Positions 1-28,500 of a DNA stretch of 64,000 nt are shown here, one piece after another (position 1 is the first letter of the stretch; each line of letters opens with the position of its first letter). The notes under the pieces are model-generated. The model had not been told where the DNA came from. It ran no database searches and saw only the letters and a list, made by a program, of their open reading frames with translations. This DNA comes from Mycteria americana (taxonomy: Eukaryota > Chordata > Aves > Ciconiiformes > Ciconiidae): contig NC_134365.1 in assembly GCF_035582795.1 (NCBI RefSeq), forward strand, positions 38,978,135-39,042,134, read 5' to 3'. The position numbers and the translations under genes are program-made.

Positions 1-85
1 TGCAGGGTATATGCAGTCAGTCCAAGAAATACAGCAGTAGTAAGAATAAAGGCTTGCAACACGATGGACACATCATAGAAACTCA
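1..85 (-). CDS. TMBIM4: TMBIM4 exon 5, cut by the window edge
   Basis: After the acceptor TATAG (90-86) the minus strand reads [20 protein letters not shown] and on to AYTLQ, the fourth hydrophobic helix of TMBIM4 with its conserved FYDV. The reading frame joins exon 4 through a split Val codon. The rest of the exon and the last exons with the 3' UTR lie left of position 1. Confidence 0.9.
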
Positions 86-3000: not shown

Positions 3001-6000
3001 AATCAGTTAAGAATAGTACAGTCACAAGTAAAGACAATTTTTTCATACTGAAGCTGAAGATTGCCCAGGAATCCATCACCTGGAGATGAACTCGTATGAA
3101 GAGGAAAATCCATCTGTACTAAACTAACAGTATTAAAGCATATATAATATTTTGCCTATTAAGAACTCCACATTCAGGGAACTGTTTTTTTATAAGCACT
3201 GAATACAACAAATGTGGGCACTAACTGCACCAAAGAAAATCAGTACCGATCAGTATCGCTAGAATTAAACCATTCAAGCAGCCCTCCAAGCAAAAACTGG
3301 ACCAAAATCAAACACAAAATCACAACAGTTCTAAGTGAGCAGGATGATTTTAAATTATCAGATTCAAGTAGAAAACTGTAGTTTTACAACTTCTGTGGTA
3401 TACACTATAGCTTATACAGAAACTTTCATATAGTGTTTGATGCTCCTTTTTTATTCGGGCTTTGAAGTGAAAGTAAAAGCAAAGTCTGCAAGCGCACTTG
3501 AGGGAAACCAGAAACTGGACTCAGTGCTCTCCTCCTTTCCCCAGTTGTTCTTTTCCCCTGTCCATTCACCACAGTTTGGTTTTTGAGACTTGTTTTTTTC
3601 TCATGAAAATCTGAGAGGCAAAAAGAAGCAAGCCCACAGGAATTCTAACAGATTAGTTTTCAGGAAAAAACCAAAAGAAGATGGGGGAGGGAGGGAGGGA
3701 GGGAGGGAGGGAGGGAGAGGAGTAAGACATGATTCAGCTTTTCGGAACAGGTACCTATAATCAACAGCATTCCAAACAGATTCTAAAAGCAGATACTCAG
3801 ACCATAAAAAAAGAAATGTCAATAATTGAGATGTTCTGCAACTGATGTATAGGTTTTCATAGCGTAAATATTAAAATAAGCACTATTAATAAAGTATTGA
3901 TTAAAATAAACTTTAATGATAGTAATAAAATAAATTTTAATAATAAACCAAGGAGAAAAATATCAGAAAACTTATTTCCTAATCAGGTTACAAAATTTCT
4001 ATTACAGAATCAAAACACAGGGTATAAAAATGATCAGGCATACCGAAGTGTTCCAGAGCAACAAACTACATAAACTATACTTACACACGATAAACAGTCC
4101 TACTTCATTTTAGTATTTACCTTTCATAAACAAATGCCTGCACTCCAGTAGAGTACAGAAAAATGGCAGATGTGACTGTGGTCAAAAGAACTTGAATGGA
4201 AAGAATGCTGTAGACTTTCCGTAGAAAAGCTAGAATAAGGAAAATAAAAATGAAATCACTTTTGAGTTACACTTACAAAGTTCAACAGTAAATCAGATAC
4301 AAGTTTTCTATTTGATATGGAACCATTAGAAACTCCTCAGTCAGTGAAAAAGCACAGAGCAAAGTGGTAAGAAGCCATTTTTCCTAAAAAAGACACAGTA
4401 TTCCAGCAAAATTACATTTATTCCTGGACATCATTATTTAAACAATAACAATGATGACAAAAGAAATACAAAAAACATTTGCAAGGAATTTACTTCAGAC
4501 TATTTTAAAAACTACAGACATCTAATCTCACTAAGAACTTACTAACTATACCTTTTCCATCACGTTACTAGTATCTAATCGACCTAAATGAAGAAAGGTT
4601 TACTTGGAAGTTCTGTGGGAGACAGAACCAGCCATAAAAGTTTAAAAAGGAAAAACTTTTACAGTAATATGTATTTGATTGACTTTCTGCCATGTTAGAT
4701 GTTGTTCATCATCATTTGCAACTTACATTGTACTGAACGGATATCTGCAGATACAAACTGCTAGAAAAAAAAAAAAATCCCAGAATTAAGCTAATAGGCT
4801 TCATAATTCTAGAATTATGAAGAGTGAAGAGTGGTTCAGGACATACAGATATATCATACAGATATTCTCTGTTCTGAATGGAAGGAGACTAAGTCCATTA
4901 GGCAAAATGCTCTGAAAGGAAGAATAAGCTTACAGAGAAAATAAATTCAATCTTTAATAGCACAGCCTAAACAAGTTTAAGAGCATATACTATGAGAAGC
5001 TGAATTACCTGCTTACAGCAGGTCAAGTTAAATACACTTGTAAGCCATGAGGGGCTGGGGCCTACTTTGTCGTAGAAAGTGAACAAACCTAGTAGCAGCC
5101 TGCTAGCCAGCACTGCCTCCTCCCCATGTTATATAAATGCATCAGCAATTTTGCTAATGGCAATACCTCTTTCATATTTCATATGGCACCCTTTATTTTC
5201 CAAACAAGATAAAACTGCTATTTTTTACAGGAGGGGTCTCCTGTGTATCAGAAATATCCAATATATAATTCACAGCACACAGCTGTTTTTATTCCACGAT
5301 GTAACCAATAACACTATAACTATTTCAGCAGAATTACTGATTAGACACCTTCTATAAGAGCATTCAATGCATTTGAGACCTGCATATTAACAGCAAAGCA
5401 GTATTTCATGGCCACTAACTTGACCTTATAGCACACAAACGCTTCAGTGGAAGAGACAATATTTTAACACCTCACAGAAAAAATTCAAATCCCTCAGTCT
5501 CCTGGTTTAACTACTGTAATTATAAGCACCAATGCTAGCTTTTATACATCTTATGTATCTTGTTTGGGCTTCCAAATCCACCACTTTGGGGAAAATCAAG
5601 TCTGAATCTACAGGGGTTTAATCCCTCTGATAAAAAGACCTGCCCGCTATACACTGAAATAACATCCAGTCTTTCGCCAGCCACTGATCTTTCTCTCCCC
5701 TTCCATGCTTAACCTGGACTAAGTGACGCCCTGGCTCCCCACTCACAGCCTTTACCCAGAAGGTTAAAATACTGCGCAGAACCTGAATTCAGCTAAACGC
5801 CACAGGCGACGGGGTTAACGGAGAGGAACTTGTAGGGAGCACTGGGGTACGACACCCCTTTGACCACCCAGCAAGGGGAAGCAGCAGGGGCCACTCCGCA
5901 AGGGCTGGGGGGGCCTCGGGGGGGCGACTCGTGGGCGGGCGGCCTTACCCGTCCCCGCCCCAGTCCCTACCCATGCGGATGTGGACACTGGCCGAGGCCA

Positions 6001-6067
6001 CGTTGGTGCCGTAGTTGAAGTCATCTTCGATGGAGCTCCGCGGGTAGAGCTGCTCCGCCGCCGCCAT
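1..6067 (-). CDS. TMBIM4: TMBIM4 (Golgi anti-apoptotic protein), exons 1-5, 3' end beyond window
   Basis: This is the gene-level entry. Coding exons on the minus strand are 6067-5971, 4229-4121, 2818-2713, 1100-1067 and 85-1. Joined, they give 431 nt (143 codons plus 2 nt) with compatible phases and GT/AG borders throughout. The protein begins [20 protein letters not shown] and contains FLRKVYSIL and [10 protein letters not shown], as in vertebrate TMBIM4, whose human form is about 238 residues, so roughly the N-terminal 60 percent is here. TMBIM proteins are multi-pass membrane proteins; TMBIM4 acts in the Golgi, affects calcium release and protects from apoptosis (family knowledge). Hydrophobic segments at residues about 34-58, 70-90 and 97-115 and in exon 5 fit this. 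No lesion is seen. The promoter is a CpG island; the next gene in human order on this strand side would be LLPH, outside the window. Confidence 0.95.
86..1066 (-). other. TMBIM4 intron 4
   Basis: AT-rich, with homopolymer A runs near 186-220 and 430-460. No further gene, RNA gene or recognisable repeat is seen. Confidence 0.7.
1067..1100 (-). CDS. TMBIM4: TMBIM4 exon 4 (34-nt small exon)
   Basis: Only 34 nt long, it encodes [11 protein letters not shown] plus one base and is flanked by TTTTTGTAG and GTAAAC. The peptide matches the family segment that directly follows the LLFGF of exon 3, and the phase joins exon 5 correctly. It is too short to be called by length and is supported by peptide identity and splice borders. 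Confidence 0.9.
1101..2712 (-). other. TMBIM4 intron 3
   Basis: AT-rich intron. At about 2397-2490 a roughly 21-bp unit (TTTGGAAAATATATCTATGG) occurs twice in an AT-rich repeat patch. Nothing else is recognised. Confidence 0.65.
2713..2818 (-). CDS. TMBIM4: TMBIM4 exon 3
   Basis: The exon is 106 nt and encodes [20 protein letters not shown] followed by [16 protein letters not shown]. It holds the second transmembrane helix, a short His-containing loop and the start of the third helix. The acceptor is CTTTACAG and the donor is the consensus GTAAGT. It ends in phase 0. Confidence 0.94.
2819..4120 (-). other. TMBIM4 intron 2
   Basis: Intronic, AT-rich. It holds the GGGA simple repeat listed separately at 3682-3720. 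No other feature is seen. Confidence 0.65.
3682..3720. repeat. (GGGA)n simple repeat
   Basis: About nine consecutive GGGA/GGGAGG units in TMBIM4 intron 2. The plus strand has more than four closely spaced G triplets, so it could form a G-quadruplex; this strand is the template for TMBIM4. Confidence 0.9.
4121..4229 (-). CDS. TMBIM4: TMBIM4 exon 2
   Basis: The exon is 109 nt, enters in phase 1 and leaves in phase 2. It encodes [20 protein letters not shown], then a hydrophobic run to [11 protein letters not shown]. This is the first transmembrane helix (residues about 34-58) and the first lumenal loop. The acceptor is TAG before 4229 and the donor is GTAAAT after 4121. Confidence 0.94.
4230..5970 (-). 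other. TMBIM4 intron 1
   Basis: The first intron runs from the CpG island into AT-rich DNA. It contains a 24-bp perfect palindrome at 4799-4822 and no further coding signal. Confidence 0.65.
4799..4822. repeat. 24-bp perfect palindrome
   Basis: The half-site CTTCATAATTCT is followed at once by its exact reverse complement, with no spacer, in TMBIM4 intron 1. It is AT-rich and could be chance, a cruciform-prone site or a dimeric factor site. Confidence 0.85.
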
Positions 6068-9400: not shown

Positions 9401-11967
9401 TAATTGCAAAGTTCTTCCAAATTAGATTTCAAAATGTACGGTACGTAGCTGCAGAACTGTCACGATGTTCTTACAGGGCAGGAAAATAACAAAGAAATTC
9501 AGGGACAGATGTGCCATCTGTTGCTCTAAATTTCTGATGGTGAATTTTCAAATCCACTGATCAAGGGAAGAGAGTTTATCCTCTTTAGTACTTACAGTTT
9601 CATGAGAAAGGCTCTACCCTTTAGCAAGCAGGTCACTAAGCCAACCTTTCATTATTCCAGGATGAAAAACTTCTCTGAATGTTCCTTCAGTTTCCTAGAG
9701 CCCTCATCTTTGCCTAATGATATGTATATTCTTTTTTCCTACTAAATCCCACCTGCATTATATATTTTTTCATTATACCTCACCATATTGTAACTCGATT
9801 AGCTCCTTTATTTTTTTCCTGTGCATTGTTGATAAGACACGCCAGGTTAGTTTTGGTTCTTGAACTCTCTGGAGGTCTCAGATGCAATAAGAAATGGGTT
9901 GCGGCTAGGAACTGAGCTGTCTGGTGGCACTAGTCCATCAATGTGGTGGGTACGAGCTTACCTGCCAGGGAGCATGTGTGGAAGTTAACTGCCTGGACCT
10001 TTATTTTAGGGATTGTGAACAGCTCTTGAACAGACATGTTGGTTTGGCTGATGCAATTTGGTGAGACATTTTGAATGGGCTCAGGGTGGGTATGTTTCCT
10101 TTTGAAACAGGACTTCAGGATCAATATATCTCTGCAGTTAATAGAGTAGTGCTGGTAGTTAATAAATTAATCCTAGCATTAAAAGTCTTCTCCCAAGATG
10201 TTTGTCCACTTATGCAAGTCTCATATCTTTCAAGGGTGCCATCTTATTTTGACAAGCTGAGGTATTTTATATTTTAAGGTCAGGATCAAGCTGAAAGCTG
10301 TCTTTGCTTTCAAAGCCCACCTTTGTTATTTTAGTAGCTGCTGGAGTTTAAAAAAGAGCATTACCATTTTATTCCATGTGTAAGACTGAATCCTGGGGAA
10401 ATATAGAGTGCTACACTGACAGCCCAGTTATAGGTAATTTTTCTTTTTTTATGGAAGAAGGGTTTTTTCTTTTTCTTTATTCTTTTTTTTTTTTTTTGCA
10501 TGGAGGTAATGTTACAAACTAAACCAATTTAATAGCTGCACTGCCTCGTGAAATAGAAGGGGAAGCATTCTTGAATTTGTTTCTCTGAATGAAACATCAA
10601 AACATACCCTGGTTCCAGGTTGCTATTATTTCATTCAGTTTCAATTTAGTAGTAAGAGCTGCTTGAATTTTGGGAGTGCCATATGGAGTCTGTTTATAAA
10701 ACACTTAACTACTCTTTCTGTACAAATTCCAATGTGCTTTAATTGTCTTCACTGGACAGCCTACGTCAGCTGTAATGGCTAGTCATTCTGTCATCTAAAA
10801 CCTGGGTGTACTCATGTAAATTAGCTTATCTAAATCTTTGAGCTTATTTTGTCATGAACACTTTTAACTCTGAACCTTTTTTTTCCTGGCATTTTGAAAA
10901 GTTGAGGTCAGATTTGCTTATTTCTGTTTGAGTGTCTAGTGCAAGCAGATCCTGATAAGAACTCCCACGTGTAACAACAGTAATAGTCTGTATGCTGTTA
11001 AAGGAAAAAAAGTCCTGCATTTGGAATAGCAATGTCTTTGCAGCTGTTGGTCGGGTCTACTGCAGAGACTGAAGAGCAGGATTCAGCTCCAGATGAAGAC
11101 AATTGCATTTAGGTGTCTATAAATAGGTATCTACATGTGTGCTGAGTGCCTAAGCAACCATTACTGTCAATGGAAATAGGGGTGGCATGCGGACGCCTAA
11201 ACATAAGTGTCTGGTGCCATTTTATGGCCCTCGGTATCAATCTCATTTCCATTTGCTTCTCCAGAAAGGCACTGAGCTTCTGTAAATCCTCTGTTATATC
11301 TGCAAAGCCATGCAGATGCCTTGAGTACCCCAGAGCATCCCAAAAGGCACTGCATGCCAATGCTTAAGCAACGGCACCCTGCATATATGCAAAATATATC
11401 ACGGCTGGGATGGGGACACAGCAAGGGCAGAAAAGGGGGAGGAGGAGCTGACAAAAAACATGAAGGCGTTGGTTATTTCTGTGAAAGAGCAGGCCTGTTG
11501 CTGTAGGTTCACTCATAAAACCAAGTCAGCAAACCTCCTTTGGTGGAGGTGCAGTCCCTGTCTCTGCTAGGACAGCTTTATCAGTGCAGAAGTACCTACA
11601 CAGAGTATGGCCCCCTCTATTCTGGGCACATATTGGTTCCTAGAGAGCTGGGAGGAGAGGAGGGTACAGCTCGCCGTCAGGCACAGCCTGCACCAAGGTT
11701 TTGTCTGAAGTGGCTTCATAAGGCACAAGGCATGCCTGAAGTTACCTCATCTCACGCTGCCATCACACGCAGGTTGACCCCAATGTGCAGAGGCTACTTG
11801 CAAGTCCTGCAATGCCCTGAACAGGGTCTGGGAAAAGAAACTTGAGGAGTTTGGTGTCTTTCACCGTCTTCAGGCAAAAATGCCAAGGGCACCAAGGGGT
11901 CTTTGGGCCATGAGGTGCTGTTACCCATCAAGCAGCCCTTAGTTTTCCCACACTTTTTTTTCCACAG
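6471..11967. other. Intergenic region between TMBIM4 and IRAK3 remnants
   Basis: No gene is supported. Several open frames of 60-160 codons (for example 8442-8927 plus) have no family resemblance and fit chance. The first exon of IRAK3, which would encode the start of the death domain, is expected here but is not recognisable. A poly-T tract lies at about 10441-10498. Confidence 0.6.
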
Positions 11968-12139
11968 CTGAGTGGCTTTCAAGACACTTGCTGGAGCTTC
12001 ACAGCATTGAAAAATATGGAGGGAAGGACAAAAGTGGTGTGAGAGGTTTGTTCTGGTGCTGATGGAACAAGACCGCTGGCAGCCTTGTGCAGGCTCTTCA
12101 GGAAGTGGGTCAGTGCCAAATTCTTTGCTTATTCACAAG
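11968..12139 (+). pseudogene. IRAK3: IRAK3 pseudoexon: death domain
   Basis: A pyrimidine tract and CCACAG precede the exon. In one frame it reads AEWLSRHLLELHSIEKY, then GGKDKSGVRGLFWC, an in-frame TGA, and WNKTAGSLVQALQEVG. This follows the IRAK3 death-domain segment with LAERLS, HIEKY, KSGTRELLW, NKTIGDLLQVLQEMG in the same order and spacing, apart from a 2-residue loss at the stop. The donor-like AAG/GTTAAT follows at 12140. The stop lies about 80 nt into the exon, so any product would end inside the death domain. Confidence 0.88.
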
Positions 12140-15100
12140 GTTAATTATTTAGACCAGTGTTAAGTCTCAGGATACGTGTGCCAGATATATAGTGACTGCT
12201 CATTTTGCGTGAGGCAGAAACAAAGCTCGTGGTTCCAGACATAGCAAAGTACTTCCATGTCGCTTCAAGGTGCCTTTCTGGAACAGCAGTCAGAAAAGAA
12301 TAGTACAGATCCCTAAATACCACACTTGGTCCAGCAAAGGAGAAAAGAGTTGAAGACAGGTCTCTCACCTGAGTGTTTCCTAGTGTTAATTAATATTTAA
12401 ATACCATTTTTAAGAACATTAGCGAGTCTCGCGTAATCTTGACATTCTCAGATACTAGCAGGAAGAACAGTGGTTTATTAGTAAGCCAGAGGTTTGGATA
12501 ATCACTATTGAATTTTTAGCTAGATGTTCCTTTTAAAACTTGCTTTCGAATGATGTGCATGAGAAATATTACTCATTGGCGTGTGATACCTTTGTAGAGA
12601 TTATGGGCTGGACAATCATCTTTGTTGAATCCAGCATTTTTTCAACACTCTTGTCTGCATTGTCCCCATTTGTCCTGTTGAAGATGTTGTTTGGACAAAC
12701 CCTGCTACCTGTGAAAAACTGCTCAGGTTTTTTTAGAAGTGGAATTAGGGTGAGATTTTTCCGATGCATTTAGGGTTGAGATGTATTAACGCCAAGTGTT
12801 AATGCTGTGACTTAAAAAGCAGAAGCATCACTTCTTTCTCCTGCAGCAACAAAGCAGCTCAGCAGTCCCTGTTCATTTAAAAAGAATGAATTATGTATTT
12901 TACTCCGTGTCCAACTCTGCAGGTTTTGCCTACAAGGACGGCTATTAGTGGCATTACCTCTACAAAACATGTGTTGTCCAGTTCAGTAAAAAATCCACGG
13001 TGCTGCCTTCTCCAGAAGGATGTGTCTACTAAGAGCAGCCTAGAGAGTGGATTTACACTCAACAGATCTGTAATCGCTGCAGTGGCTGTCAGCCCGCTAC
13101 CGCTTGGGATCGAAATGTCCACGCTGCGGTTAATAACAGCCAGCTTTAGGATATGTGCTGGTTGAGCGGGCTGTAGCATGCAGGTCCTGTCTTGGTCTGG
13201 CAAAAAGGTCCTCTGCTAAGACACCAGCTGTGCTTGAGCTTTCTCCCTCCTAAAAGCGAGGCATCTAAGTTACATAAACAAGGGGAAGGGGAAAGGCCAT
13301 GTTGAGACATACCCTATAGGTCTTTTACTTTTCAGGAAAGCACAGCCATATCAAATTGATATGTCAAGTACACTTACTTACTTAATTTAAAGGAAAATAT
13401 TTTTGACAGCAGTGTTTGATTTTAAGCCTGTTTCAGAAATGTTTGATACTGAGCATGCAGAAAAGCAGCCAGAACTATGTAGTAGTGGTCGTTACGCTAA
13501 GAAATTGAGTGATCCAGGTAAATTTCTACTGTAAATCCCTAAACTTGGCCTACTGTCATCTGTGTGAGATCTTACTGACCATTCTGTAAGCATGCATCAT
13601 TTGGAACACATCTGCATTGTATTACATCCTAATCCAGTTATCCCATACTGTGTTTGGTTTTTAGAGATCCTTGCCTGAGAAAAATAGATTTTAAAATGAC
13701 TTTAGAAGATGGTTGTCTCTATATCTTAATGAGTCAGCCATTGAAGTGATTGATTCATTAAATCTAATACTTGGTGTTAGACATCTAATCTAATTGGAAA
13801 TCTAATATCTCTGCTAAAATATTAAACACATTCATTAATACCTGCCAACAAAATAATTGTAACTGCAAGTCAACCCTTTTAATGGTGCTTTCATGATTCC
13901 TGGCCAAAATACATAATTGTTCACAACTGTCGTGCAGCTCCTTTAAAGCACTATGTCCGAAGTTAGCAGCTGTGTTTTAGATGCTACCGCCTTTCCTTTA
14001 ACTGAAAATCACTGCTGGGGCAGGATTCTGCTTAATCATCTCTGTGAGGCCTCTGAAGGGAAGGACGGAGCTGACAGTTAAAGTATTAACATAATTATAG
14101 TTATTTATGAATCTTCCAATAACCTTAAGTTTTGGGGAACCTAGCCCTTTATATTCAAACATTAATTTCTCCTTTTTCAAGAACAACTGTAACAAGGAGA
14201 GAGTGGTCTGTCAGCTGGCTTCTGAAGCATCACTTCCAAGGTATTTCCTAAGTACTGGATCTCAGTTGGAAGACTCCTGTGCTCTAGTATATAGCAAGAC
14301 TGAAATATCTGATTTTACATGGCTGTGATGCAAGTCATTCCAGGCAAAAAGTCCAAAAAAGGCCCCAAACCCCACATAAGCTCCTCTGGCAAATTAAAAA
14401 AAAACCAAACAAAAAACCCCCCAACTTTTATAAAAAAATTAATTATCTTAAAAAAAATTAGACTCACAAGCCCTCTATCATGCCTCTGGGTTCGTTCCTT
14501 AAATACTAGCAGCCTCTCCGCAAACAAATCACACAGTGTGGACTTTAACTCCCAGGGCTGCCGAGGCAGACTCTGAATTTCCCAGGTTAGTGGAGAGTTT
14601 CTTTGTGGAAGGCTTCCTTGCCTAGCGCGTGTCCTGCCTGCGTTAGAGCAGGGGGATTGCACCTCCGTTGTCAGGTCTGGGACGGCCTTACAGCTAAGCT
14701 GCTGGTTTTCTGAAGTCCTTTGCAATACACATGGCTACACAGCTTATCTTGAAGATCTGTGTACTTTTTTGAGGGTGTGGAATAGGGCCGTATTTGAGAT
14801 TGCTTGAGCCAGAAGTTCATCCTGGAAAGGTGGGATTTACAGTCCCACTTAAAAAAGCCTTTGGTCGCCAACATTAAGTAGTAATTTTAGCAGAGTTTGC
14901 TTGGACTTGGGACTGACTTATGACTTTGCCCTCTCCTAAACCAGTTTGCTTGTTTGATTTTTATACAATGATTGTTTACAACTGCATATTAGCCTAGATT
15001 AGAAGGAATGCGATGGAAAGTGCGGCAGCTCATCCTGAAGAACTTCAGGAGCGGACATTTCCAAAGATAAATTTTCACAGGCAACCATATTTTTGTATAA

Positions 15101-16480
15101 CTCCATACTGAATAACTTAATGTGTAGATCGTGATCAGTATGACCTCATCTGGGGGAGGGGGGGCTGCTGTTTGTGCTCACAGGAGGAAGGCGATGTGCA
15201 CGCAGGGGTTGGTGGCAGGGAGAGGGTGGTGCCTTGTTGGGTGGCAGCCTGTGTTCCAGCAGGCTTCATAACTAATTATGAAGTCACAGGTTTAGTTAAC
15301 ATTTGGCCCAACTATTTCCTTTGTGGATATCACATTCAAATGTTATTCGGAGCAAAAATTAGTCTTTCAGTAGTGTTTAGGCTTGGGACAGCATCAGATA
15401 AAATAACTTTTCCTGTGCAGCAGGCTGGAGCTCTAGTACACACTAGGTACCAGTGTAAAAGCGCGTGGCTCAAGGTATGTGGCAGGACCAGCTGGTTCCC
15501 AGCCATGCTGCGGTGCCAACGGTTTGAATATTTCTTTGCCAGTCTCAGAAATATATGTTGTGGCTGGTATTTCATATTGGGCTGCTTAGGACTTTTGCCC
15601 AGAGATGGAAATGCACACGCAATCTCAAAATACTTAGAAAATTGCCATGGCTACATCTACGTCCTGCGTGGAGTGGATGCCAGATGTTAGGCATTACCTG
15701 GATAGTGACTTCTCCCTTAAACTTTCTCCAGAATCGTGTTGCTTTTCTCTTCACGTTCTTATGAAACTTGCACGTCGCTGAGAGGTTGCACTGCTGTGGT
15801 TACACTCGGGAAGCACTTAGGAGGCAGCTGAAGGTGTCAGTCCTGTCAGGTATTATTTTGGGGGAAGAAATCCCAAGCAGAGCTCCTCCTCCATCTAAAA
15901 TACACACCTGGAACATTTTCAAATGGATATGATTTTACTGAAGAGCTAAGGGGAACAAAAGTTTCTGACCTCATGATGTTTTTGTCTTTCTAATACAAAA
16001 AAGGGAGTAAATTTTGCAGTGCTGGAAAATGTTACTTAAACATTCTTTGCATCCTATGTTCCAGGAAGTAGAGGGCATCATTCATCTAATTTAAGTTTGT
16101 GTTAATAGTATTTTAGGGCAATATTAGGGAACATCCTTGTGTCTACTAGGCACTCTAGAAATAAACAATACCTGCATAAACCACCCCAAATATTCTGTAG
16201 CTTTTTTTCGAGAGATGTGTAGAAGCAGACCTTCGGGCACGTATGCGTTCTGTTTGGGAGACCAGTTGCAGCAGTGGTTATGATGATCTGGCTGCTTGCA
16301 GACAGGAGCTTTCCAGAGGCAAATTGGCAACAGATGCATTTTTTTAACTAATGTTTTTAATTGGCTGTGCTGTGCTGAATTTTGTAGGGGAATTAATACT
16401 CTAAGGTAAGCCACAAAATTCTAATGATGTGCTGATAAAAATATATAGAAGTCAGTTCTTTCTCTCTGTTTTTCTTTTAG
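12140..16480. other. Former IRAK3 intron
   Basis: No gene is supported. At 12877-13203 both strands stay open for 90-108 codons without any recognised family. A 172-codon plus frame at 15172-15690 is not recognised and is of a length expected once or so by chance in 64 kb. Confidence 0.55.
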
Positions 16481-16523
16481 GAAACACTTAGTGTAGCATG
16501 CATCCCTGAATCTCATTATTAAG
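16481..16523 (+). pseudogene. IRAK3: IRAK3 pseudoexon: linker between death domain and kinase (candidate)
   Basis: A 43-nt segment is bordered by a strong TTTTTCTTTTAG acceptor and AAG/GTAAAA donor. It reads ETLSVACIPESHY and then TAA. The human linker has ET..V, then IPEH in the same order. The match is short, so it rests on position, borders and the ET/IPE residues. The in-frame TAA adds another lesion if the assignment is right. Confidence 0.55.
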
Positions 16524-17898
16524 GTAAAAAAATACTTAAATATGTTTTGACTGACAGTTTCTAGCAGCACCGATGTGGGAAAAGATGCTTTTTGTCAGCC
16601 CCACATATAATTATAATTCTCACTGAAATTCTTTCTGTAAATAGGTTGATGCTGGGAATATAGTTTGAGAAGCTCACATACTTTCCTGAAATTTATGCTT
16701 CCCATGATGGCAATAAATTACAAAACTCATGTTAAGTGCCTTCTAGTTCTCAGAATACAAATGTAGATTTTTCCTTCAGAGGCTTACTGTCATTCTGCAT
16801 CTGTGAAGTTTGTTACTTCTACACAGAATAGAAAACAAATATAAAACTGCTGCATTTTTGCAATTTTATAGATGTTTTAATTCATCAACAATCTAGCAAT
16901 ATGTAGATACCATTTATGGTATCATTCATGGTATTTCTAAATACAGACTAACTTTTGCACAGTTTTATTTTGGCTGTGAAACTGTAGCTTCATCTCTTAG
17001 GTTACATCAGCCTAAGCACTAGATGTGTACCACCATGTCCCATCCCACTGATACAACTATCCTGAACTAACAAAGGATAAAGCTTCTACTTTAATTAGTA
17101 TATCTCTGGGACAGTGTTTTTCTGTGACAGAAAAGTCTTTTATGTGAAAAGTTCTTGATTAACAAAACCCCAATCAGGTTTCTGACAATAGAGAAAGTGG
17201 GTTTATGTATCAAAATATGTATTGCTTTCAAACATAAAGTGTTTTAAAATTAATATTTTTAAAAATACATACATTCTAAATAGCAAAAAAGAAAAGATTT
17301 TGCTTTCCTGATAAGTCCATTACCAACTCAGCAACATTACTCTTGTGACACATATGAAAAAGTAGGCTAATACAAGTCTTTGTGAAATATCATGGATCCA
17401 CACCCAAAGGACAGAAAATCATCCACTGTACGTCTGGCAACATAAAAAAATGAACAGCAATAATGCTATTTTGTTTACATCACTTTATTACTTAGCATTT
17501 GGTTCTTTCTAAAAATGCATTACCACTTTGTTATTATTATTTACTTTTGTTGTAAACCTTGTTTTGGTCTTTGGAGAGATTGAAGAGCTCCCAAATGCGA
17601 GGAATGCAAAAGAGGCTTAAAGTTTCCCATATGTCTCCAGCTCTGTTCCTGCCTTCAGCACCAGTTAAGTGCTGAAGTCCCCAGTGCTGGTTCTAGATCA
17701 CAGCATTGCTGTGGTTCTAGATCACAGCATTGCTGCTCTGAACTGCGGTCTCTGGACAGAGGGAAAATCCCCTGCAAGAGAGTCTCACTTTTCTCTCTGT
17801 CTCATAGTCCCAGAGACCAGCTTCAGCATCCTTGTACCACTCTCTTTTCAATTATTAGTTTTAATTCTGTGGACGCAGCAGTGAAAAGAGTGTAATAG
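16524..17898. other. Former IRAK3 intron
   Basis: AT-rich DNA without gene signal. A 24-bp unit is duplicated in tandem at 17688-17735. Confidence 0.55.
17688..17735. repeat. 24-bp perfect tandem duplication
   Basis: Two identical, directly adjacent copies of a 24-bp unit that starts TGGTTCTAGATC, at 17688-17711 and 17712-17735, about 165 bp before the next IRAK3 remnant. Confidence 0.95.
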
Positions 17899-18127
17899 TG
17901 GTGACAAAAAGGGGAAAAGAACCATGAAGCTGTTAGAATTCTATAAATGGTTGATAAATAATGCTCAACTTTCTATGAAAAACCTTGCACCCCCATATCA
18001 ACTTAAAACCATCAGAGATACAACAGAAAACTTCAGTGAAAACTTGCTGGTTGGAGAGCAAAAGTTCTTTGAAGTCCACAAAGCAGATACTCAGAATCAA
18101 AAATATGCTATTAATTTTTTGAAACAG
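17899..18127 (+). pseudogene. IRAK3: IRAK3 pseudoexon: start of kinase N-lobe
   Basis: The open frame from about 17885 contains YQLKTIRDTTENFSENLLVG, then EQKFFEVHKADTQNQKYAINFLKQ, and ends at the donor CAG/GTGTAG. It follows the IRAK3 segment FQNIIEGTRNF..FLIGEGEIFEVYRVEIQNLTYAVKLFKQ residue for residue. The glycine loop GEGEIFEV is reduced to GEQKFFEV, and the conserved ATP-site lysine (AVK) is Asn (AIN, AAT instead of AAA/AAG). The exon has no stop; its exact 5' border is unclear because candidate acceptors give inconsistent phases. Confidence 0.85.
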
Positions 18128-19913
18128 GTGTAGGCTAGAAATAAGGCTGCTGTATGAAAACAAGATTGCTGCCTTACTAAGATCTTGCCCAATATTTCCT
18201 TTTCTTCTCAGTTGAAACAGTCTTAACTTTCTCAGGCAATGTATGTTGCACACGGATAAGCGAAGTATTCCAGAGAATGGATTGGTACTGAAGATATTGA
18301 TGAGATACTCTATTATTTCTGGCAGTGGTTTTCGTCTACACTAGCTTTAAGACTATTACCTGTGCAATTTCAGAGATTTCACATGGAAATGTTGGACTGG
18401 ATCTAACAGTGGGTTATGGCAAAGTAGTCCAAAGTGTGTGAAAAAATATAAATATAAGTAACAGAAAATACTTTAAAATAAGGCTGAATTTTGGTTTAAT
18501 ACTGATGGTTGCTTGTTTTAATAATGGGTACTCCTCCCTGATGTCCAAAACATTCATTTTTTGCATAATTCCATTCAGGAGATGGTTTTTTTTTTTCTAG
18601 TTTTCTTTATTTGTCTGTGCTAAAGAGTACAGAAGCCTAGAGACTGACCTTGCTTGTAATTCAAAGTATGTTCAGGAGCAACTTGAACATCTTGGAAACA
18701 GTGCATGTTTCAGCTCCACTGTTTCAAACTTCCTGGTCATGTTGAGGTTTGATTTCAGTATGCTTTAAATAATTATAGTTTTCCTGAAGGTCGGGCTTAA
18801 AAGAAATATCATGAGCAGTGCAACATTAAATAATAGAAGTTTTCTGAAATTTGGGGTAAGTATCTTTACAAATAAATACAAATCAGTAAGGGGACTTTGA
18901 ACTTCCTCTGTACTGATGGGGGCTGAGATAACTAAGCCGGAATCAGTAGAGATGTGCCCTCATATTCCACCACATGTATGTGCAGTCTTTGGGTGAGGTT
19001 AGTGGCCATCCCTTTGAGGTAGCAGGCCAGGCAGGTGGTGCTGTATGTAATCTGAGTCTTGTAAGTGTTAATTTTATCTATGTTTATTTTGGTGTGGGTT
19101 TTTGAAGGCTGCTGGGTGGTTTTAATAGGAGGAAAATTTTAACTAAATGACTTGAAATTCCACCCCATGGGATAAACATGGAGTTTAGGATAGAACAAAA
19201 GAAGAAGGGAAAATTAACTTGCCTTTTGCTGTCAAGAATGTTACAGACAACTCATTGGCTAGTGGTATCGAGGCATCAGCGGTGATAGAAGGTATCAATA
19301 AATTTTATTGAATTTATGAACTTTTGGAAATACTGTAATAATTTTCTTGGGTTTTGTTATGTGGTGTTGTCTGTTGCAATTTTGCGGTGGTGACTGAGAA
19401 TCCAAGCTCCCTGCCATCAAAGCTGAAGAGGCACAGGCTTTTTGCGTGCTTGTTTTTGGGAGGACTTGCTATCAGTCTGATTTCTGTTAACGGTTGTTTA
19501 ATTAAAATATAATTGCAGAAGAAATGGTACTGATTAGCATATATGTGTTCCCACAAAGTGCAACTTATTCCTATTCATTACGGACAAGAGTGTGAACTTG
19601 ATCTCTTACAGCCGTCCTGGAAACACTCCCAACGCAAGAGTGCTCCTGGGACCTTGTGCCTGTCTGCAAGCAAAGGAAAAGGAAAAGTCTTTGGTATCTT
19701 CCCTGGCATATGTTTATTCTTACCTTTTATTCTGGCAAACACACCACTTCTTGCATGTTCCCCTGTGGCCTGAGTATTGGATGTAAGCAAGGTAAATGCC
19801 TTTGCTTTTTCCCTTTATGATAGAGGAGTTGCATCCCACATTAACAAGCCTTAAGAACATCTGTGCGCTGTAACTCACATATTGATTATATATGTTTCCT
19901 GGCTAATATATAG
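18128..19913. other. Former IRAK3 intron
   Basis: No feature is recognised in this AT-rich stretch. Confidence 0.55.
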
Positions 19914-20095
19914 ACAAAACATATGAAGAAACAGTGGAAACTCTTTCATTCAGAAATTGAAGCTTTGCAGTTCTGAGTTGATTTTATGTTTTAGCTTTTC
20001 CTTTTCACATTAACTTCTTGCCAAGCTGCATGTAAACCTCCTTTGTCTAGAAAATGCAACCTTTTCAAGAGTAAAATATTCCAGGGGTTAGCTGA
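19914..20095 (+). pseudogene. IRAK3: IRAK3 pseudoexon: kinase N-lobe continuation
   Basis: After ATATATAG the plus strand reads TKHMKKQWKLFHSEIEALQF and then TGA at 19974-19976. It starts in phase 0, as the previous exon demands. IRAK3 has KKHWKRFLSELEVLLLF at this point. Beyond the stop, similarity can be followed only in pieces: around 20045-20075 a frame reads CLENATFSR where the family has CL..RNGTLFDR. Further stops and indels follow, so the 3' border is approximate. Confidence 0.78.
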
Positions 20096-23000
20096 AACTG
20101 GTCTTAACAGTGCTATTCTTCTGGCTTCATGCCTATGGAAGTGGTTAATGGTTGGAATTTATGTCACAGAACACATAATAATTTGTTAGAAGAAACTGGA
20201 TTCAGTCACAGCACAGGCGTTTTTCTCTTCCTGTCATTATATTTTGTGAGGATTTACTTATTTCCTGCAATCTCAGCCCATGTGAAGAAGCGAATGATAA
20301 AATTTCTGCATAATTTTTCTGAGAATACATTTATACTCCAGATGACCTTTGGAGTAAATTTGAACTATTAGATTTTCCCACATATTTATAGCTGTGGCCG
20401 TGCATTTTTGCCAGCAAATCTTGCAGGCTTTATCCACCAAACATTTATTTATGGTAAAAAAACCAATTTGCACTTGGAACACTATAGAAAAAGTTCAAAG
20501 CCATTACAGTTGAAGTTAAGCTTTCATTTATAGTCTTATTTTTTCTGTATTGTCATCAGCCAATGTTACATTCAAATTCATAACCTAAGATGACTGTTTA
20601 CTTCATTTAATTCCTTTCTGTGCTGATAACTATTGCCTGTGAAAGTGATTTTCCTGAGACCACACAGGCATATATAAAATACTGGTCCTTTTCTTTCTAC
20701 TGAGCTATCAAGGATTCCAAAGCTACCTTATGCCTAGGTTTCTTCATCCAAGCTTGCTTGAACTAGATGGATATTTCTCAGAGAATGGGCTGTTTTGCTT
20801 TATATGAAGAAAAAATAATGTGGAAGTCTTAATTTACAAATAAATACTGGCAATTCCATTTTGCGTCAGCCTTTATCAAAATATTTGCTTATACTATACG
20901 AGGTATCCTGTTGTTGACTACATAAAAATATATTCCCAAAGCAAAAATGTTTGCTGGAGAGTACTTTTGGCTTGAGAATTCGATCTGGATTTGTGTTTGG
21001 GATTTTCTGCTTCCCTGTGTGGCTACATACTGCTCTGTACATCTTGCCACACCATGGGACGCCAGGGCTGTTACGTTACTTCCACCCTGGACAATATCCG
21101 TGTAAGCTGGTTCTCGGTAGGCATCACCAAATGATGCTCCTGAAGAAACCTGGAACTTGGAGAAAGGAGGAACACTCACGTGCGATTGAGCAGAGGCCCC
21201 CATGGACAAATACCTGGGTGTACAGAGTCCAGGGACAGACGGTGCTGGGCAATACAGCTGTGGTACTGGAAGCGCTGCTCTTCACAGATTTACATTAACT
21301 CATGGTTTCCTCGAGCAATGACCGTGAACGTATGTTAAGGCCCCAATTCACCAGTGCCATTAAGAACTGTTTCTTTTTAAACATACCTTTAAATCTGGTC
21401 TCAAAATACACATTTTAGTGCTTTGCTGAACTGGGGATTAAGTGTGGCACCTGTGTTATCTTATACACTGAGTTTATGCACCGCAGGCATTGAAGAGGGT
21501 CAAATGGGAGATCATTTATCCTAATTACTGTGATGTAAGAGGAGCAGCAGGGGGTAGAGAGGCAAAAATTTCTTTAATCCTGCCACGTACAGAACAAAAG
21601 CATTTTCAGCACCCTTTCAAGACGTGTGATGGCGCATAATCTCCCACGTCTCCGTCAATCCTTTTATAACCGCGCTTAAAATGGATTTGCCCTGTCAACA
21701 TTAGTTGAGAAACCCTTGTTGCCAATAATTGAAACCTGCAATAGCAATAGATTTTTCCTAAGATTAAATGGGCTTTGAAAGCCTCCAGTATAACTCAATG
21801 TAAAACACTCTCGTTACCGCTGGTCATACCGACGCAATCTCTTCAATGTCTGTTTTAAGCATTTCTTTTTTGTAAAGGTAAGAAAAAGAAGGTGTTGAGA
21901 GTCTCGGTATTGCAAATACATTTGTACTTCTTCAGCAGTATTGTCATAATTTGTACTGAAAAAGAGTAATATGAACTTCAACCCCTCTGAAAATGTTGCA
22001 AGGTTATTTCTTAATTTTGATGACAAAGCTCAACTGTGTGGCATTTAATGAAGAAAACAAATTAGACCCTCCAGGTGGAGGGAGTGTATAGGAGGCTCTA
22101 TATCAAAGCCCTTCAGTGAATATCCAATCTATATTCAAAAGCAGAAGGGTAGCAATTATCATATGGTGTTTTTTTTAAGTTTGCCATTTACTGTTGTGCT
22201 TTTTGAAGTGGAATTTTTGTATTACACAGAGCACATATTTAGTTACAGTGCCTCTGTTTTTATTGTGACGGTCTCTCGCTATCCTGGCAAACTTGTCTGA
22301 ATATATTAATAGGAATAGCCGAAGCTTTTCAGTATTTGCATGCTATCCAGCCCTGCCCTGCTATATGTGTCAGAATAGCAAGGTATGTCATAGAAATGAC
22401 ATTTTCATACATGCTGTATAGTACGCATACACAGAGAGCAGTAGGAACTAGCATGGCATGACATGTATTTAGACAGCAACCTCCCTATAGATTATAACTG
22501 CTTAATTCTGTCAAAACTTTTTGGTTTTCAAATCTTTGGGTAATGAATAATTTACTTAGTGTTGCCCAGTTGCCTAGTTTTGTGAAGAGCTCTTAGCAGA
22601 ATGAAAGGCATTAAAGTGACCTGGTTCTGCAGCAGGGAAACCCATTTCAGCTCAGCCCGGGGCTGTCAGTCCCTGCTCCAGCTACGGTGTAGGTGACCCC
22701 ATCCCCACTTGCAGACTGACTTTCCAGCTTGGCCTCAGGCCTGTCGTGTCACCACAAATCGGTCTGGCAGCGGGGCTGGGGGATGTCCCTGCCTGCCCCC
22801 CCAGCCTGCCCCGCTCCCTTGCTGGGTCGGTGAGATGGGCCCTGGCCTGCCCACCCCCATGGGGGTCCCCATGGGTCCTGGCACCCTGGCCCCTTGCAGT
22901 GACTGTGGGTGCTCAGTCCTTCCCTAAACATCATACAGGTGAAACCTTGATCCTCCTCAAATTTTTGTTGAGATCAGTGAGCCTGTGAGTGGGAGTCGTG

Positions 23001-23707
23001 GTGCACTTGCAGAAGATTCGTTGTAAAACAAGAGGATGAATTTTGCAGTTTCAACCGTGGTTGAAACTTCCTGGCTATTCTCAGTTATATGAATGAAAAA
23101 ATTGCGCTATAGTTCATCTATAGCTCATCTATAGAAGGTAATCTATAGTTAGGTATATAGGTATCGTTCATCTGTAGAAGGTAATCACGTCTGTCTTCTC
23201 CACATAATGTGAATTCAGATGGATGGATTTTACAGGAACTAATACACAAAGATTGGCTGTTTGCATGAGGCCAAGTATTTGGAATTTAAGGTCAAAAAGG
23301 AATTTGGTTTTGGAAGTTATGAACAGCTGAAGAGAGAATTTAGAATGGAAGCAACTATTACATTAGCCACGCACTACTACTAATAAATACTGAACAGTGC
23401 GGTTAGGCACTGACCCAGTGTATGCTTATTTTAAGCATCTGCTCAACTTGAAAAAATGTAAGGAATCTCACTGAAAGGGATAGACTTTTTCAGCTTGTTC
23501 TTCCAGCGTGTACATAAATGGGATTGCTTCAGAGGAGCTATAATGCACAATAAAATATTAATCTAATAAACAGGAAGAATTTGATGCATTAGGAAAATGT
23601 AAGCATTGAATTTCCTTTGCCTGATTTTTCACCCTCCCTCCCTTTTTTCTCCCTCCCCCCCTTTTCTCATATGTAAGCTATATATATACATATATATATA
23701 ATTTCAG
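20096..23707. other. Former IRAK3 intron, missing kinase exon
   Basis: The exon coding for the segment before the activation loop (family IRIGILIGIS..IHYLH) should lie here but is not securely found; a weak candidate is at 20975-21060. A GC-richer patch at 22640-22910 and imperfect repeats of a TCATCTATAG-type unit at 23107-23187 are the only other structures. An AT-dinucleotide tract lies at about 23679-23702. Confidence 0.5.
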
Positions 23708-23898
23708 TACAAACATACTTTTGGATGACCATAATCAACCAAAAATATTGGATTTTGCTGTGTCATGTCTGAGATCCCATGTGGTACTTCAGATTTGCAC
23801 TGAGAGTATGGATACCAGTAAGTTCTGGAGATACATGCCAGAGAAGTTATTAAAATGGGGCAAACCCTCTGTAAAATTATGTCTACAGCTGTGGAATA
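23708..23898 (+). pseudogene. IRAK3: IRAK3 pseudoexon: activation segment, frameshifted
   Basis: After ATTTCAG it reads TNILLDDHNQPKILDFAVSC, then LRSH, and later RYMPEKLLKWGKPSVK. IRAK3 has ANILLDDQFQPKLTDFAMAHFRSH and WYMPEEYIRQGKLSIK. Then the frame breaks: the family TDVYSFGI continues only in the next frame as VYSCGI from 23881. Two bases are missing between AAA and GTC, removing the conserved Asp. In the original frame a TAA follows at 23917-23919. The exon ends at GCAAGT, either a GC-type donor or a damaged GTAAGT. Confidence 0.9.
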
Positions 23899-24175
23899 GC
23901 AAGTATCAACTTCTGTAAACCAATAAACAAATCTTTTTTTCTAAATTATCTGATTGGGAGACGGGATGATCTTAATCTTTTAGCATTATTTGATTTAATG
24001 TTAAATATTGTGCAATGATTTTACCATTATAAGGAATGTAAGCAATAAAGAATAAAATCACTTGCTAAAAAAGATAACTATTAAAAGATATTTAATAGCT
24101 ATAGTTAGTTATTAATGGTTTATTAATATTTTATGATCTCAAAAAATAGCCTAACTTTATTTTGAACTATTTTAG

Positions 24176-24236
24176 GATATAATGGAAGTTTTGACAGGCT
24201 TTGAAGCAGAGATAAAGGGTCCAAACCGCTCTGTTA
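24176..24236 (+). pseudogene. IRAK3: IRAK3 pseudoexon: kinase C-lobe
   Basis: A 61-nt segment between TATTTTAG and GTGAGT. It reads DIMEVLTGFEAEIKGPNRSV, matching IRAK3 IMEVLTGCRVVLDDPKHIQ, and joins the preceding VYSCGI in phase 0. With the consensus donor at 24237 it ends in phase 1, which does not fit the next exon; a weaker GTTAGT donor at 24233 would. The exon itself carries no stop. Confidence 0.82.
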
Positions 24237-24317
24237 GTGAGTCATAGTTCAAAAAGGCATGCTACGTTCCTAAATTTTTATTTTTTTTTTAATGTAACCA
24301 GGTTATACTTTTTCTAG

Positions 24318-24445
24318 CCAGAAGGATGTGATGGTGAACATGATGGAGAAGAGTAGCTTTGATTCATGTCTTGCAAATGCTTGGTCTAGTATGTCAATGT
24401 ACATCACGTGCAAAGCTGAGGTCCACAGTGAGAGAAGTTTGTGTG
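24318..24445 (+). pseudogene. IRAK3: IRAK3 pseudoexon: end of kinase domain, deleted and frameshifted
   Basis: After TTTTTCTAG one frame reads QKDVMVNMMEKSSFDSCL, where IRAK3 has LRDLLRELMEKRGLDSCL. From 24398 the +1 frame reads CTSRAKLRSTVREV, where IRAK3 has CAATRAKLRPSMDEV. The roughly 20 residues that should separate them are shortened, so a deletion and a frameshift lie near 24375-24398. Two separate matches in order in two frames are strong evidence of decay of a real exon. Confidence 0.88.
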
Positions 24446-25000
24446 AGATGATAACTTTTATGATTAAAATGGTATTTTACAACAGGAGGAGAAAGCCAAG
24501 AACAGGATCAAAAGCTGGGCACAAATGACAGCATGGTCTCTACCAATTACAGTCAGATACCAACACTAGAAGATGGGAAGATGACCAAATATATATAATT
24601 AAATATAATTTTTTATATTTACTGGTCTTTTCAAAAAACCCATTCATTTTCCCCAACTGCCTCTCTGTCACATGCTGTATCAGGACTGTGTGGATTCGGG
24701 CACCAGTATTGCTAACGCACTGCATGACACAGATGTGTGTCTGTGGAGTGGGAAGAGCTCCCTGCCATGCTGTAGATACTCTGGAGCAGCGTGTGTGGAC
24801 CCTGGCCTATGTGAGAGTTGTTCAGTATTCTGTTTTAAAGATTGCCAGCATGGTAGTGGCGGAATGCTTTCACTTCAGCTGGTTACTTTGCAATCCTTAA
24901 GTTAAGTTAGGTCAAGGTAGAAGCAGCTGAAAATATTTTTGCATATAAAGTTGAAACAGATGACACAGCTACAAAGATCTATGAAGACACAACTGGCGTA
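24446..25000. other. Non-coding stretch after the last kinase remnant
   Basis: No feature is recognised. The IRAK3 C-terminal exons would be expected downstream of here; no convincing trace is seen in this stretch. Confidence 0.5.
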
Positions 25001-25530: not shown

Positions 25531-28500
25531 AAAAACATTTGATTTTAGTCGGATCAATTCTCTGATCTGGCTCAGCCGGAGGCTGCAAAAGCACTGGTGC
25601 CGGCACAAGGCAAGGAGGAGGCCCAGGCTGGTGAGGGCATTGAGGAGAGCAGAAGTGCCCTTGCCGGCAGCAGTGTGTGCTGAGAACAGCTTATACAGCT
25701 CTTGTGCAGCGTTGGAAAAGGTGTCAGCTTGGGGCTGCCCATGAGGACAGTCTCCTCTTCTTGCATTGGCGAGGCTCTTCTGGCACTAATGAGCCTCGGG
25801 TTCCCTTTGCCACCTACACCCCAGTTTTTGTGCAATCCCTTCCACACAACGGTTGTATTTCCAGAAGAAAACCTCAGGTGGCAGCAGCATCATAGCTTTT
25901 GTAACCGGTCCTGGTCTTCGAGCAATTCTTCCTTGTGCCACCAGTCATTAGAACTTGTTAACGAGGGGCCCTTGTGCTTAACAACATTATTAGCGAATCA
26001 TCAGCCTATGGAAGAAGTGTTCTTTTCTGGCTGATTTAATGATGTGCAGCTCTCATTTGGAAGTCCTGCATCCATGTTTTATATATTCATGCAAATGATG
26101 CGTATTTTTGTATATTCATGTAAGATGAATTTGGGTTACTTTAGGTTGATAATGTGTTTGATCTGAGTTAAACCTCTTAGAGCACTCTCTGAAAGATTTT
26201 CTGTCTCCTTGAAGCTAGATAGTCGTCCACTCTCTGATTTCTTGTATGTGACCGTATGGGAATGAAAAGGCGGGAGGAAGGTATGCAAAGAATTGCTAAA
26301 AGGGCAGTAGGGAATCCAGAAGGGAGGAATTTGGGAGTAGAACAAGCAACAAAAAGTTAAAGAAACATGGTGAGAGATGTAGGAAATCAGACGGAGAATG
26401 CACAAGGGAGGAAAAAGCTCAAGCCTGGTTGGAATAAGAGTTGTTTCTCACAGCTCCGTTTTCAGGGCTCTTGAACACCTGCAGTTCCCTTGCACTGTTT
26501 CAAGACAGTGTCACAGAGATCAGCTTTGGGATTTCCTGCTATTCTCACTTGCAATGACTCTATCTCTCCATCTAATTGCCTTTTTTAGGCACTGGACACT
26601 AGAAAATTCTCTCTATACTTTGAATTTCACTGCCAGTCAAGATCTTTGAAGTCTTTCACATCGTTTCCTCTTTCAGGCTCCTGCCATTAAAGTATACCTG
26701 TAGAAAACAATAAGCACCAAAACTTTCTGTTCTCTCCTCCCAAAACAGACAAGAGAGCAAAGAACATTCCTCTTGAGCACGATGGTTTTGAAGTCACGTT
26801 CCTGCGACCAGACAGAAAAAGAAAACAGTTTAAGGAACAGCAGAAAAATTGCCACTGAAAGGGGACTGGCAATGGGCCATTTCTCCAGCCTATCCCTGAA
26901 ACAAACATGTTTCCTGATACCCACAAGAGCTTGCGACCTTCTTTTCCTTGACTGCAGCATTAGAACAAGATTGCCATGGTCTTGTGGGACTGAAGAATGG
27001 ACACCAAAATACATCAGCTCCTTCTGCACTGGAAAATAGAGAAAATGGTAAGTTTATTCAGTTTTAATGGACTCTGATGCATTTTTGGTACGTCTGCTAC
27101 ATTTGATAGCGATTACAGCAGTGTCTTTGATGCTGCAGTGTCCATCTGCTCGTGTCACCTTGGCCTGGTTTAGACACAGGTGAAGCTGTTATTTGGAGAA
27201 GCGCATGGGTGTAAGGTGACTGAAGGTCTGAGAAAGGGGCAGTCCCACTCCCTGCTGCTACTTTATGCCTCAGGGCAGCACTAGAGGGTGGAGCAGAGAA
27301 GGACTACAGCCCTTCCTGCATCCTCTCCGCCCAGGACTAGGATGAGAAACAGGCGAGTATGCATCCACATGTGCCATCTCTTGCATGGGATTCATGATGG
27401 GAAGGAACCGGTGGTAGACTGCATGCATTGGCATTGCTGTTTTCGAGGCTGCCGCCAAGTACGGGTAATGCCGCTGCTCAGCACAGTTTGCAGAATGTGT
27501 CCAGGAAGTGGAGAAATTAGGATGGAGTGATGCTGTGTAGTGTTAAGATGCTGGTGGCATCTTAAGTGCCTTTTTCAGAGCAGTGGGTGATCTCAGTGAG
27601 CTGGTCTCCCAGGTCAGCATCCTACAAACGCCGCATCTCATCATGCAGCAGGCGGGTAGGTGAGCAAGGCCGGATGTCTCAGATGGCACCGTGAGATGCA
27701 AGGGATGCCTATGGAGCAAGCCCGCCTAAAGATTGCATGGTGTGCTTTTGCTTACTTGTCAGAAGTACAGGCGCATTCTCACGCTGTCTAGATTGATGGC
27801 ATAACTGAGCAGATCCTCCTTGAGTCCCTGTTTGCTCAGATCAGCCAGGCTCTGACCTGTGAGAGGTCCCACAAGCATCAGCAGGGCTACGCAATCTGTG
27901 GCACAGCCGACCACAGCCACAAAATCGGATGGGTCTCCTGGACCAGTGCTGCTGAATCTCGGTGCAGAGCGGAGCAAGAGTCTCACTCCAGTGCTGTCTG
28001 CTAAGCCCGTCCTCCTCCAGCACCCCGGCACTTGCTCCACAGCCTTCTGGCCTGAACCACCAGTGGTGGTGTATAATAAACATTTTATTTGGGCAAGACG
28101 GCAGGCGATTTTGCATCGCAGGTGAAGTATATAAAGCTCCAGTTGTTTCAATACTGGGAAGAATGGGACGAAGAGTAAAAGAACCTCACAGTAGCATGTT
28201 ACTATGTTACTTCCATAGTAACAGTTTCCTAAAAACTTCAGTTATTTCTAAGTCGTGTACATATAACTAGCCCTTTTAAAATTAATTATTCACTGGAGAT
28301 GATTTTATGTCATTTTAAAAATGCACAACCTAATTAAAATACAATTGCCGGTCTATTAAATACCTGATTTGCCCATATTTCTTTATGTTTTATTATTATG
28401 AAACACAGTATTTTAAATTGTGAGTTGACTTCAGCATGGGGTTTATATTAATGTGTAATTGTGGGTTTTACTTATATTTGTGAGGAGAATTGTGAGATTT

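What the first reader, a model, noticed from the sequence alone, without database searches (positions are those of the whole stretch)
11968..24445. IRAK3 (IRAK-M) is a unitary pseudogene in this bird, in place between intact TMBIM4 and HELB
Seven segments matching IRAK3 in the right order, strand and location carry several independent disabling changes (stops, frameshifts, a deletion, loss of the ATP-site lysine), while both neighbours are clean. IRAK3 limits TLR/IL-1R signalling, so its loss would change how inflammation is restrained in this lineage. Seen: peptide matches and lesions. Known: family role. Inferred: loss of function and no second copy.
Basis: partly seen in the sequence, partly recalled or inferred. 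Interest (0 to 1): 0.88.

Follow-up and report, generated by a model that had tools for sequence, protein, structure and literature searches.

The report
Dead IRAK3 immune-brake gene in bird
This bird carries only the decayed remains of IRAK3, a gene that in mammals damps inflammation; birds had already been listed as lacking the gene, and here its wreck is found in its original place with no other copy found in the assembly.

Summary
They fit IRAK3 better than IRAK1, 2 or 4 and lie beside TMBIM4. The frame is broken by three in-frame stops, a 1-base frameshift and a ~45-base deletion with a frame change. At residues invariant in 42 intact IRAK3 proteins the relic keeps 28 of 44; intact members left out of the definition keep 84-100% on closely similar column sets. 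Introns and four splice signals remain, so it is not a retrocopy. Three searches of the 1.35-Gb assembly find IRAK1, IRAK2 and IRAK4 but no second IRAK3. It is a unitary pseudogene.

The loss is not new: Gosu et al. 2012 (PMC3498205, passages seen) report from database searches that Aves lack IRAKM. New here: the relic, its lesions, and a rough neutral divergence of about 0.2 substitutions per site. No sauropsid name appears among 120 listed of 228 IRAK3-profile hits, so the absence may be wider than birds; the database's sauropsid coverage was not tested.

The parts
11967..12137 (+). IRAK3 death-domain pseudo-exon; in-frame TGA at 12060-12062 and 9 bases missing beside it; acceptor CACAG kept
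   Evidence: PDB 5uke (IRAK3) E 1.5e-6; 47% identity to Pongo IRAK3
17918..18127 (+). pseudo-exon of the linker end and kinase N-lobe; ATP-site Lys codon is AAT (Asn) at 18113-18115; donor GTGTAG kept; the stretch before 17981 is weakly supported
   Evidence: 41 bits, model 127-204
19914..19967 (+). short kinase pseudo-exon remnant (KKQWKLFHSEIEAL); weak match
   Evidence: (5 bits, background 4)
20730..20804 (+). kinase pseudo-exon remnant (HPSLLELDGYF), followed at once by TGA 20805-20807
   Evidence: (9 bits)
22243..22380 (+). kinase pseudo-exon up to the catalytic loop; donor AG|GTATGT kept
   Evidence: (35 bits)
23706..23876 (+). kinase pseudo-exon (NILLDD to YMPE); acceptor TTTCAG kept; 1-base frameshift at about 23877 before VYSCGI
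   Evidence: (49 bits)
24179..24223 (+). kinase pseudo-exon remnant (IMEVLTG)
24322..24439 (+). C-lobe pseudo-exon, two blocks in different frames with about 15 residues (45 bases) missing between them
26592..26855 (+).
   Evidence: (30 bits)
3..6067 (-). TMBIM4 (neighbour): four matched segments at 6067-5972, 4245-4123, 2817-2680, 119-3, none with a stop; the rest of the gene lies beyond the window start
   Evidence: 50-75% identity to a recalled human TMBIM4, residues 1-143; Bax1-I

Best explanation
The interval 11967-26855 is the unprocessed, orthologous remnant of IRAK3 (IRAK-M), a unitary pseudogene. The gene was inactivated in an ancestor of this animal and has since decayed about neutrally. 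Any transcript would meet a stop inside the death domain (TGA 12060), so neither the MyD88-docking domain nor the pseudokinase can be made. Shown: homology, order, place beside TMBIM4, lesions, decay at invariant residues, no second copy found in this assembly. Inferred: the loss is fixed and old, probably shared by many or all birds; and this lineage restrains TLR/IL-1R signalling without IRAK3, relying on other brakes.
For: IRAK3-specific similarity: PDB 6ruu E 2.3e-25 against IRAK1 8e-8; 5uke 1.5e-6, next hit 0.16. 4 of 4 tested exons score higher against each of 5 IRAK3 references than against partial loci of the animal's own IRAK1, IRAK2 and IRAK4. Order and background control. Lesions. 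Retention at invariant columns 28 of 44 against 59/70 for the worst intact member left out; P 0.0007. Own-genome searches: ape IRAK3, 26 matches, 4 in the locus; caecilian IRAK3, 25 matches, 4 in the locus; the relic's own translation, 12 matches, 8 in the locus, best elsewhere E 0.05, 27% identity, 4 stops. Annotated IRAK3 proteins exist in mammals, amphibians, coelacanth and ray-finned fish.
Against: Several exons are still open over 40-60 codons with good splice signals, so the decay is moderate, and a short product cannot be ruled out from sequence alone. Exon 1 and most of the linker were not found. In some searches the top-scoring place was not the relic but another kinase (C7, ROR1-like). 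Of the matches outside the locus and the IRAK paralogs, I identified 4 of 16. One assembly only: no reads, no RNA, no population data. The age estimate is rough and biased, because only recognisable segments were counted.
Confidence: 0.95

Rival explanations
1. The locus still makes something: a short death-domain or kinase-fragment protein, or a non-coding RNA with a role of its own.
For: Four splice signals look intact and some exons are open; trout is reported to make many IRAK3 variants (PMC6763605, abstract start in the listing).
Against: A stop lies inside the death domain; kinase exons are cut by a stop, a frameshift and a deletion; invariant residues are lost in death domain, kinase and tail; exon 1 was not found.
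Confidence: 0.04
2. It is a duplicated or processed pseudogene and a working IRAK3 lies elsewhere.
For: The assembly may be incomplete.
Confidence: 0.01
3. The lesions are sequencing or assembly errors in a working gene.
For: Only one consensus was seen.
Against: 16 of 44 invariant residues are changed, with a ~45-base deletion, missing exon parts and three stops in different exons, while the matched TMBIM4 segments have no stop.
Confidence: 0.005

Closest known systems
IRAK3 (IRAK-M, IRAKM) of mammals, amphibians and fish
   Same: Same domains in the same order: death domain, pseudokinase, C-terminal tail with the EVTFL motif; same neighbours (mammalian synteny recalled).
   Different: Stops, frameshift and deletion; 16 of 44 invariant residues changed; exon 1 not found; cannot encode the protein.
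Absence of IRAKM in Aves as reported by Gosu et al. 2012 (PMC3498205, passages seen)
   Same: Same conclusion for birds.
   Different: They report absence from database searches; here the relic is located and its lesions listed. Their statement that Aves lack IRAK1 does not hold for this genome, if it is a bird; 'amphibians lack IRAKM' does not fit the annotated amphibian IRAK3 proteins.
Other bird unitary pseudogenes, e.g. STK33 in neognaths (PMC4509753, title and abstract start seen in the listing)
   Same: A conserved vertebrate kinase-family gene that became a unitary pseudogene in birds.

Membership tests
IRAK3 orthologue (by descent) | Sequence closer to IRAK3 than to IRAK1, 2 or 4 | tested here: met
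   (paralog loci are partial)
IRAK3 orthologue (by descent) | Death domain followed by kinase-like domain and IRAK3 C-terminal tail, colinear | tested here: met
IRAK3 orthologue (by descent) | Lies between TMBIM4 and HELB | tested here: met
   TMBIM4 side; on the HELB side only one AAA helicase exon was tested, so this half is weaker; the mammalian order is recalled
IRAK3 orthologue (by descent) | No catalytic Asp in the kinase-like domain | tested here: met
   loop reads CVRIASTN where ape IRAK3 has CGSISSAN; weak, since the gene is decayed
Functional IRAK3 | Open reading frame over death domain and pseudokinase | tested here: not met
Functional IRAK3 | Purifying selection on invariant residues | tested here: not met
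   28 of 44 kept; intact members left out keep 84-100%
Unitary pseudogene | No functional copy elsewhere in the genome | tested here: met
   within this assembly of 1.348 Gb in 279 contigs; only the best candidates are scored by that tool
Unitary pseudogene | Unprocessed (introns kept), in the orthologous place | tested here: met
Unitary pseudogene | Fixed in the species, shared lesions in relatives | not testable with these tools
   the genome tool states that this genome has no relatives held

The most novel reading that the evidence does not exclude
Functional IRAK3 is missing not only from this bird but from all living birds, and perhaps all sauropsids, so that a whole vertebrate branch runs TLR/IL-1R signalling without this brake while mammals, amphibians and fish keep it.
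Probability: 0.35. Interest if true: 0.6.

Novelty: new member of a known kind. Interest (0 to 1): 0.42.

Why it matters
Birds would be natural IRAK3 knock-outs. IRAK3 is described as a negative regulator tied to endotoxin tolerance and sepsis, with some reports of opposing functions (PMC8846508, abstract start in the listing). A physical relic turns a database absence into a firm gene loss and makes it possible to ask which other brakes took over. It also separates true loss (IRAK3, inside a 223-Mb contig) from apparent loss (IRAK1, on a small GC-rich contig).

Tried and rejected
Considered and rejected: retrocopy (introns and splice signals present); another IRAK paralog; local duplication (no repeats of 40 bases or more in 11900-27000); assembly error.

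An apparent extra match at about 18519-18600 that I read by eye as the HPNILEL segment was dropped: the profile places that segment at 20730-20804. In one search the start of the 17918-18127 fragment was misaligned into the death domain (29 of 49 counted there); it was trimmed for the count of 28 of 44, and 46 of 79 at 95% columns. The controls were not rerun on the trimmed set; on their column sets the relic, still with the misaligned start, kept 34/52, 44/70, 29/46 and 35/58. The death-domain Pfam search of the whole genome does not list the relic, and the Pfam scans of its typed exons stay below the curated cut-offs. In one search the best out-of-place match had E 0.032 (minus strand, 13966-14290).

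Dating: 28 of 44 corresponds to about 0.2-0.25 neutral substitutions per site in a simple simulation with equal codon use (95% range of retention 0.48-0.78). With a recalled avian rate of roughly 0.2% per million years that is of the order of 100 million years, very loosely. A divergence of 0.4, my rough expectation for a loss at the base of sauropsids, would give 28 or more with probability 0.01, but the count is biased upward because only recognisable segments enter it.

Literature: eight searches on birds or loss and one on function, PMC open subset only, no bioRxiv, lists capped (for instance 25 of 353, 25 of 75, 15 of 64, 25 of 71); and word finds in PMC6763605, PMC3498205, PMC4290089, PMC12954441 and PMC8449477. 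I saw no paper describing an avian IRAK3 pseudogene.
Full report
WHAT WAS CHECKED. The window is C1:38978135-39042134 of an unnamed assembly of 1.348 Gb in 279 contigs; C1 is 223 Mb long. Genome size, IRAK4 at 34.06 Mb and this locus at 39 Mb of the same large contig, and a small contig with 73% GC fit a bird, but I did not test this; a keratin-family check did not complete.

THE SEGMENTS ARE REAL AND ARE IRAK3. With 6 mammalian IRAK3 proteins, tblastn of the window gives ten plus-strand blocks in protein order from 11967 to 26855; off-locus matches at E < 1 were two places with E 0.47-0.96. Six further queries (marsupial, platypus, frog, caecilian, axolotl, coelacanth) each recover six of the blocks: death domain, kinase N-lobe, HPN segment, catalytic-loop exon, NILLDD exon and tail. 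A profile from 42 intact IRAK3 proteins, scored against all six frames of the whole window, gives 49, 41, 35, 30, 26, 9 and 5 bits inside this interval and at best 4 bits elsewhere; the small blocks at 24179-24448 score 4 and 2 and so rest on order and alignment, not on score. Among solved structures the joined kinase exons hit IRAK3 at 2.3e-25 and IRAK1 at 8e-8, and the death-domain exon hits only IRAK3 with significance. In one search, 4 of 4 exons scored higher against each of five IRAK3 references (33.5-56.2 bits) than against partial loci of the animal's own IRAK1, IRAK2 or IRAK4 (at most 27.7 bits). Beside it, TMBIM4 has four matched segments without a stop, and on the far side a 311-codon open exon carries AAA helicase domains; HELB as a whole was not checked.

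IT IS BROKEN. In-frame TGA at 12060-12062 in the death domain with nine bases missing beside it; TGA at 20805-20807 directly after FCFI, where intact proteins read on; one base missing at about 23877 before VYSCGI; about 45 bases missing with a frame change near 24375; TAA at 26688-26690 in the last exon. The ATP-site Lys reads Asn. Exon 1 and most of the linker were not found. At columns invariant in the 42 intact proteins the relic keeps 28 of 44 residues, and 46 of 79 at columns conserved in 95%. When each group was left out of the definition, its members kept 48/51 to 52/52 (mammals), 59/70 to 68/70 (amphibians), 45/46 (coelacanth) and 52/58 to 57/58 (ray-finned fish); the relic, with one fragment end misaligned in that call, kept 34/52, 44/70, 29/46 and 35/58 on the same columns. 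Even the worst intact rate would give 28 or fewer of 44 with probability 0.0007. This is decay of a gene, not noise in a consensus.

NO OTHER COPY WAS FOUND. Ape IRAK3 against the whole assembly gave 26 matches at E up to 1: 4 in this locus, 2 at IRAK4 (C1:34.06 Mb), 3 at IRAK2 (C11:10.18 Mb), 1 at IRAK1 (C256) and 16 others. The best-scoring of all was one of those others, C7:67732552, which is ROR1-like; three more of the 16 were identified as CaMK1-like, RIPK2 and RIPK3-like and 12 were not looked at. Caecilian IRAK3 gave 25 matches: 4 in this locus, 3 at IRAK4, 4 at IRAK2, 1 at IRAK1 and 13 others, of which two are the ROR1-like and CaMK1-like places. The relic's own spliced translation gave 12: 8 in this locus and 4 elsewhere at E 0.05 or worse. 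The paralog names rest on solved structures: IRAK4 1.4e-26, IRAK1 5.1e-12, IRAK2 3.3e-23. Because paralogs were found exon by exon with an IRAK3 query, an intact IRAK3 should have been found; IRAK1 sits on a contig whose first 10 kb are 73% GC, so even a hard region was assembled.

HOW IT WORKS, OR RATHER DOES NOT. With a stop inside the death domain no IRAK3 protein can join MyD88/IRAK4 complexes. The likely consequence, inferred from mammalian work, is that TLR/IL-1R signalling in this lineage is restrained by other means. IRAK3 is a pseudokinase, so the lost lysine alone would not prove loss of function.

WHAT WAS KNOWN. Gosu et al. 2012 (PMC3498205; passages seen) state that Aves lack IRAK1 and IRAKM and that reptiles and amphibians lack IRAKM, based on BLASTP and TBLASTN of databases and genome assemblies, and add that not all vertebrate genomes were included. 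This genome agrees on IRAKM and has an IRAK1 gene. Frog, caecilian and axolotl proteins annotated as IRAK3 do not fit the amphibian statement. Eight searches of the open-access library on this question, with capped lists, showed no paper describing an avian IRAK3 relic; that is no proof of absence.

HOW WIDE AND HOW OLD. Three protein searches listed 120 of 946, 25 of 25 and 120 of 228 hits. None of the named rows is from a sauropsid; 3, 3 and 4 rows carry no name. The last two searches used the relic in the query and would favour sauropsid sequences. This suggests, but does not show, that other sauropsids lack an annotated IRAK3; the database's coverage of sauropsids was not tested. The retained residues fit about 0.2-0.25 neutral substitutions per site. 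With a recalled bird rate that is near the age of crown birds, with a wide margin.

VERDICT. A true unitary pseudogene, soundly supported. The loss was already in print as a database absence; the relic, its lesions and the whole-assembly tests are the addition. Interest is moderate.

Noticed in passing
L021 (G000:C256:1-10000), minus strand, about 9546 to 887: IRAK1, reported as lacking in Aves in 2012, is present here: segments matching its death domain and much of its kinase on a 336-kb contig whose first 10 kb are 73% GC. The C-terminal part was not looked for.
   Followed up: partly
L022-L023 (C11:10.17-10.19 Mb) and L024-L025 (C1:34.06 Mb): IRAK2 and IRAK4 of the same genome, found exon by exon and used as controls.
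   Followed up: partly
protein search: None of the named rows among the 120 listed IRAK3-profile hits is from a turtle, crocodile, lizard, snake or bird, although frogs, caecilian, axolotl, coelacanth, monotremes and marsupials are there.
   Followed up: partly
window 50001-52000: The most GC-rich 2-kb step of the window (54%) lies before the helicase gene, as expected for a promoter; the 2-kb steps from 8001 to 18000, around the start of the relic, stay at 36-44%.
   Followed up: no
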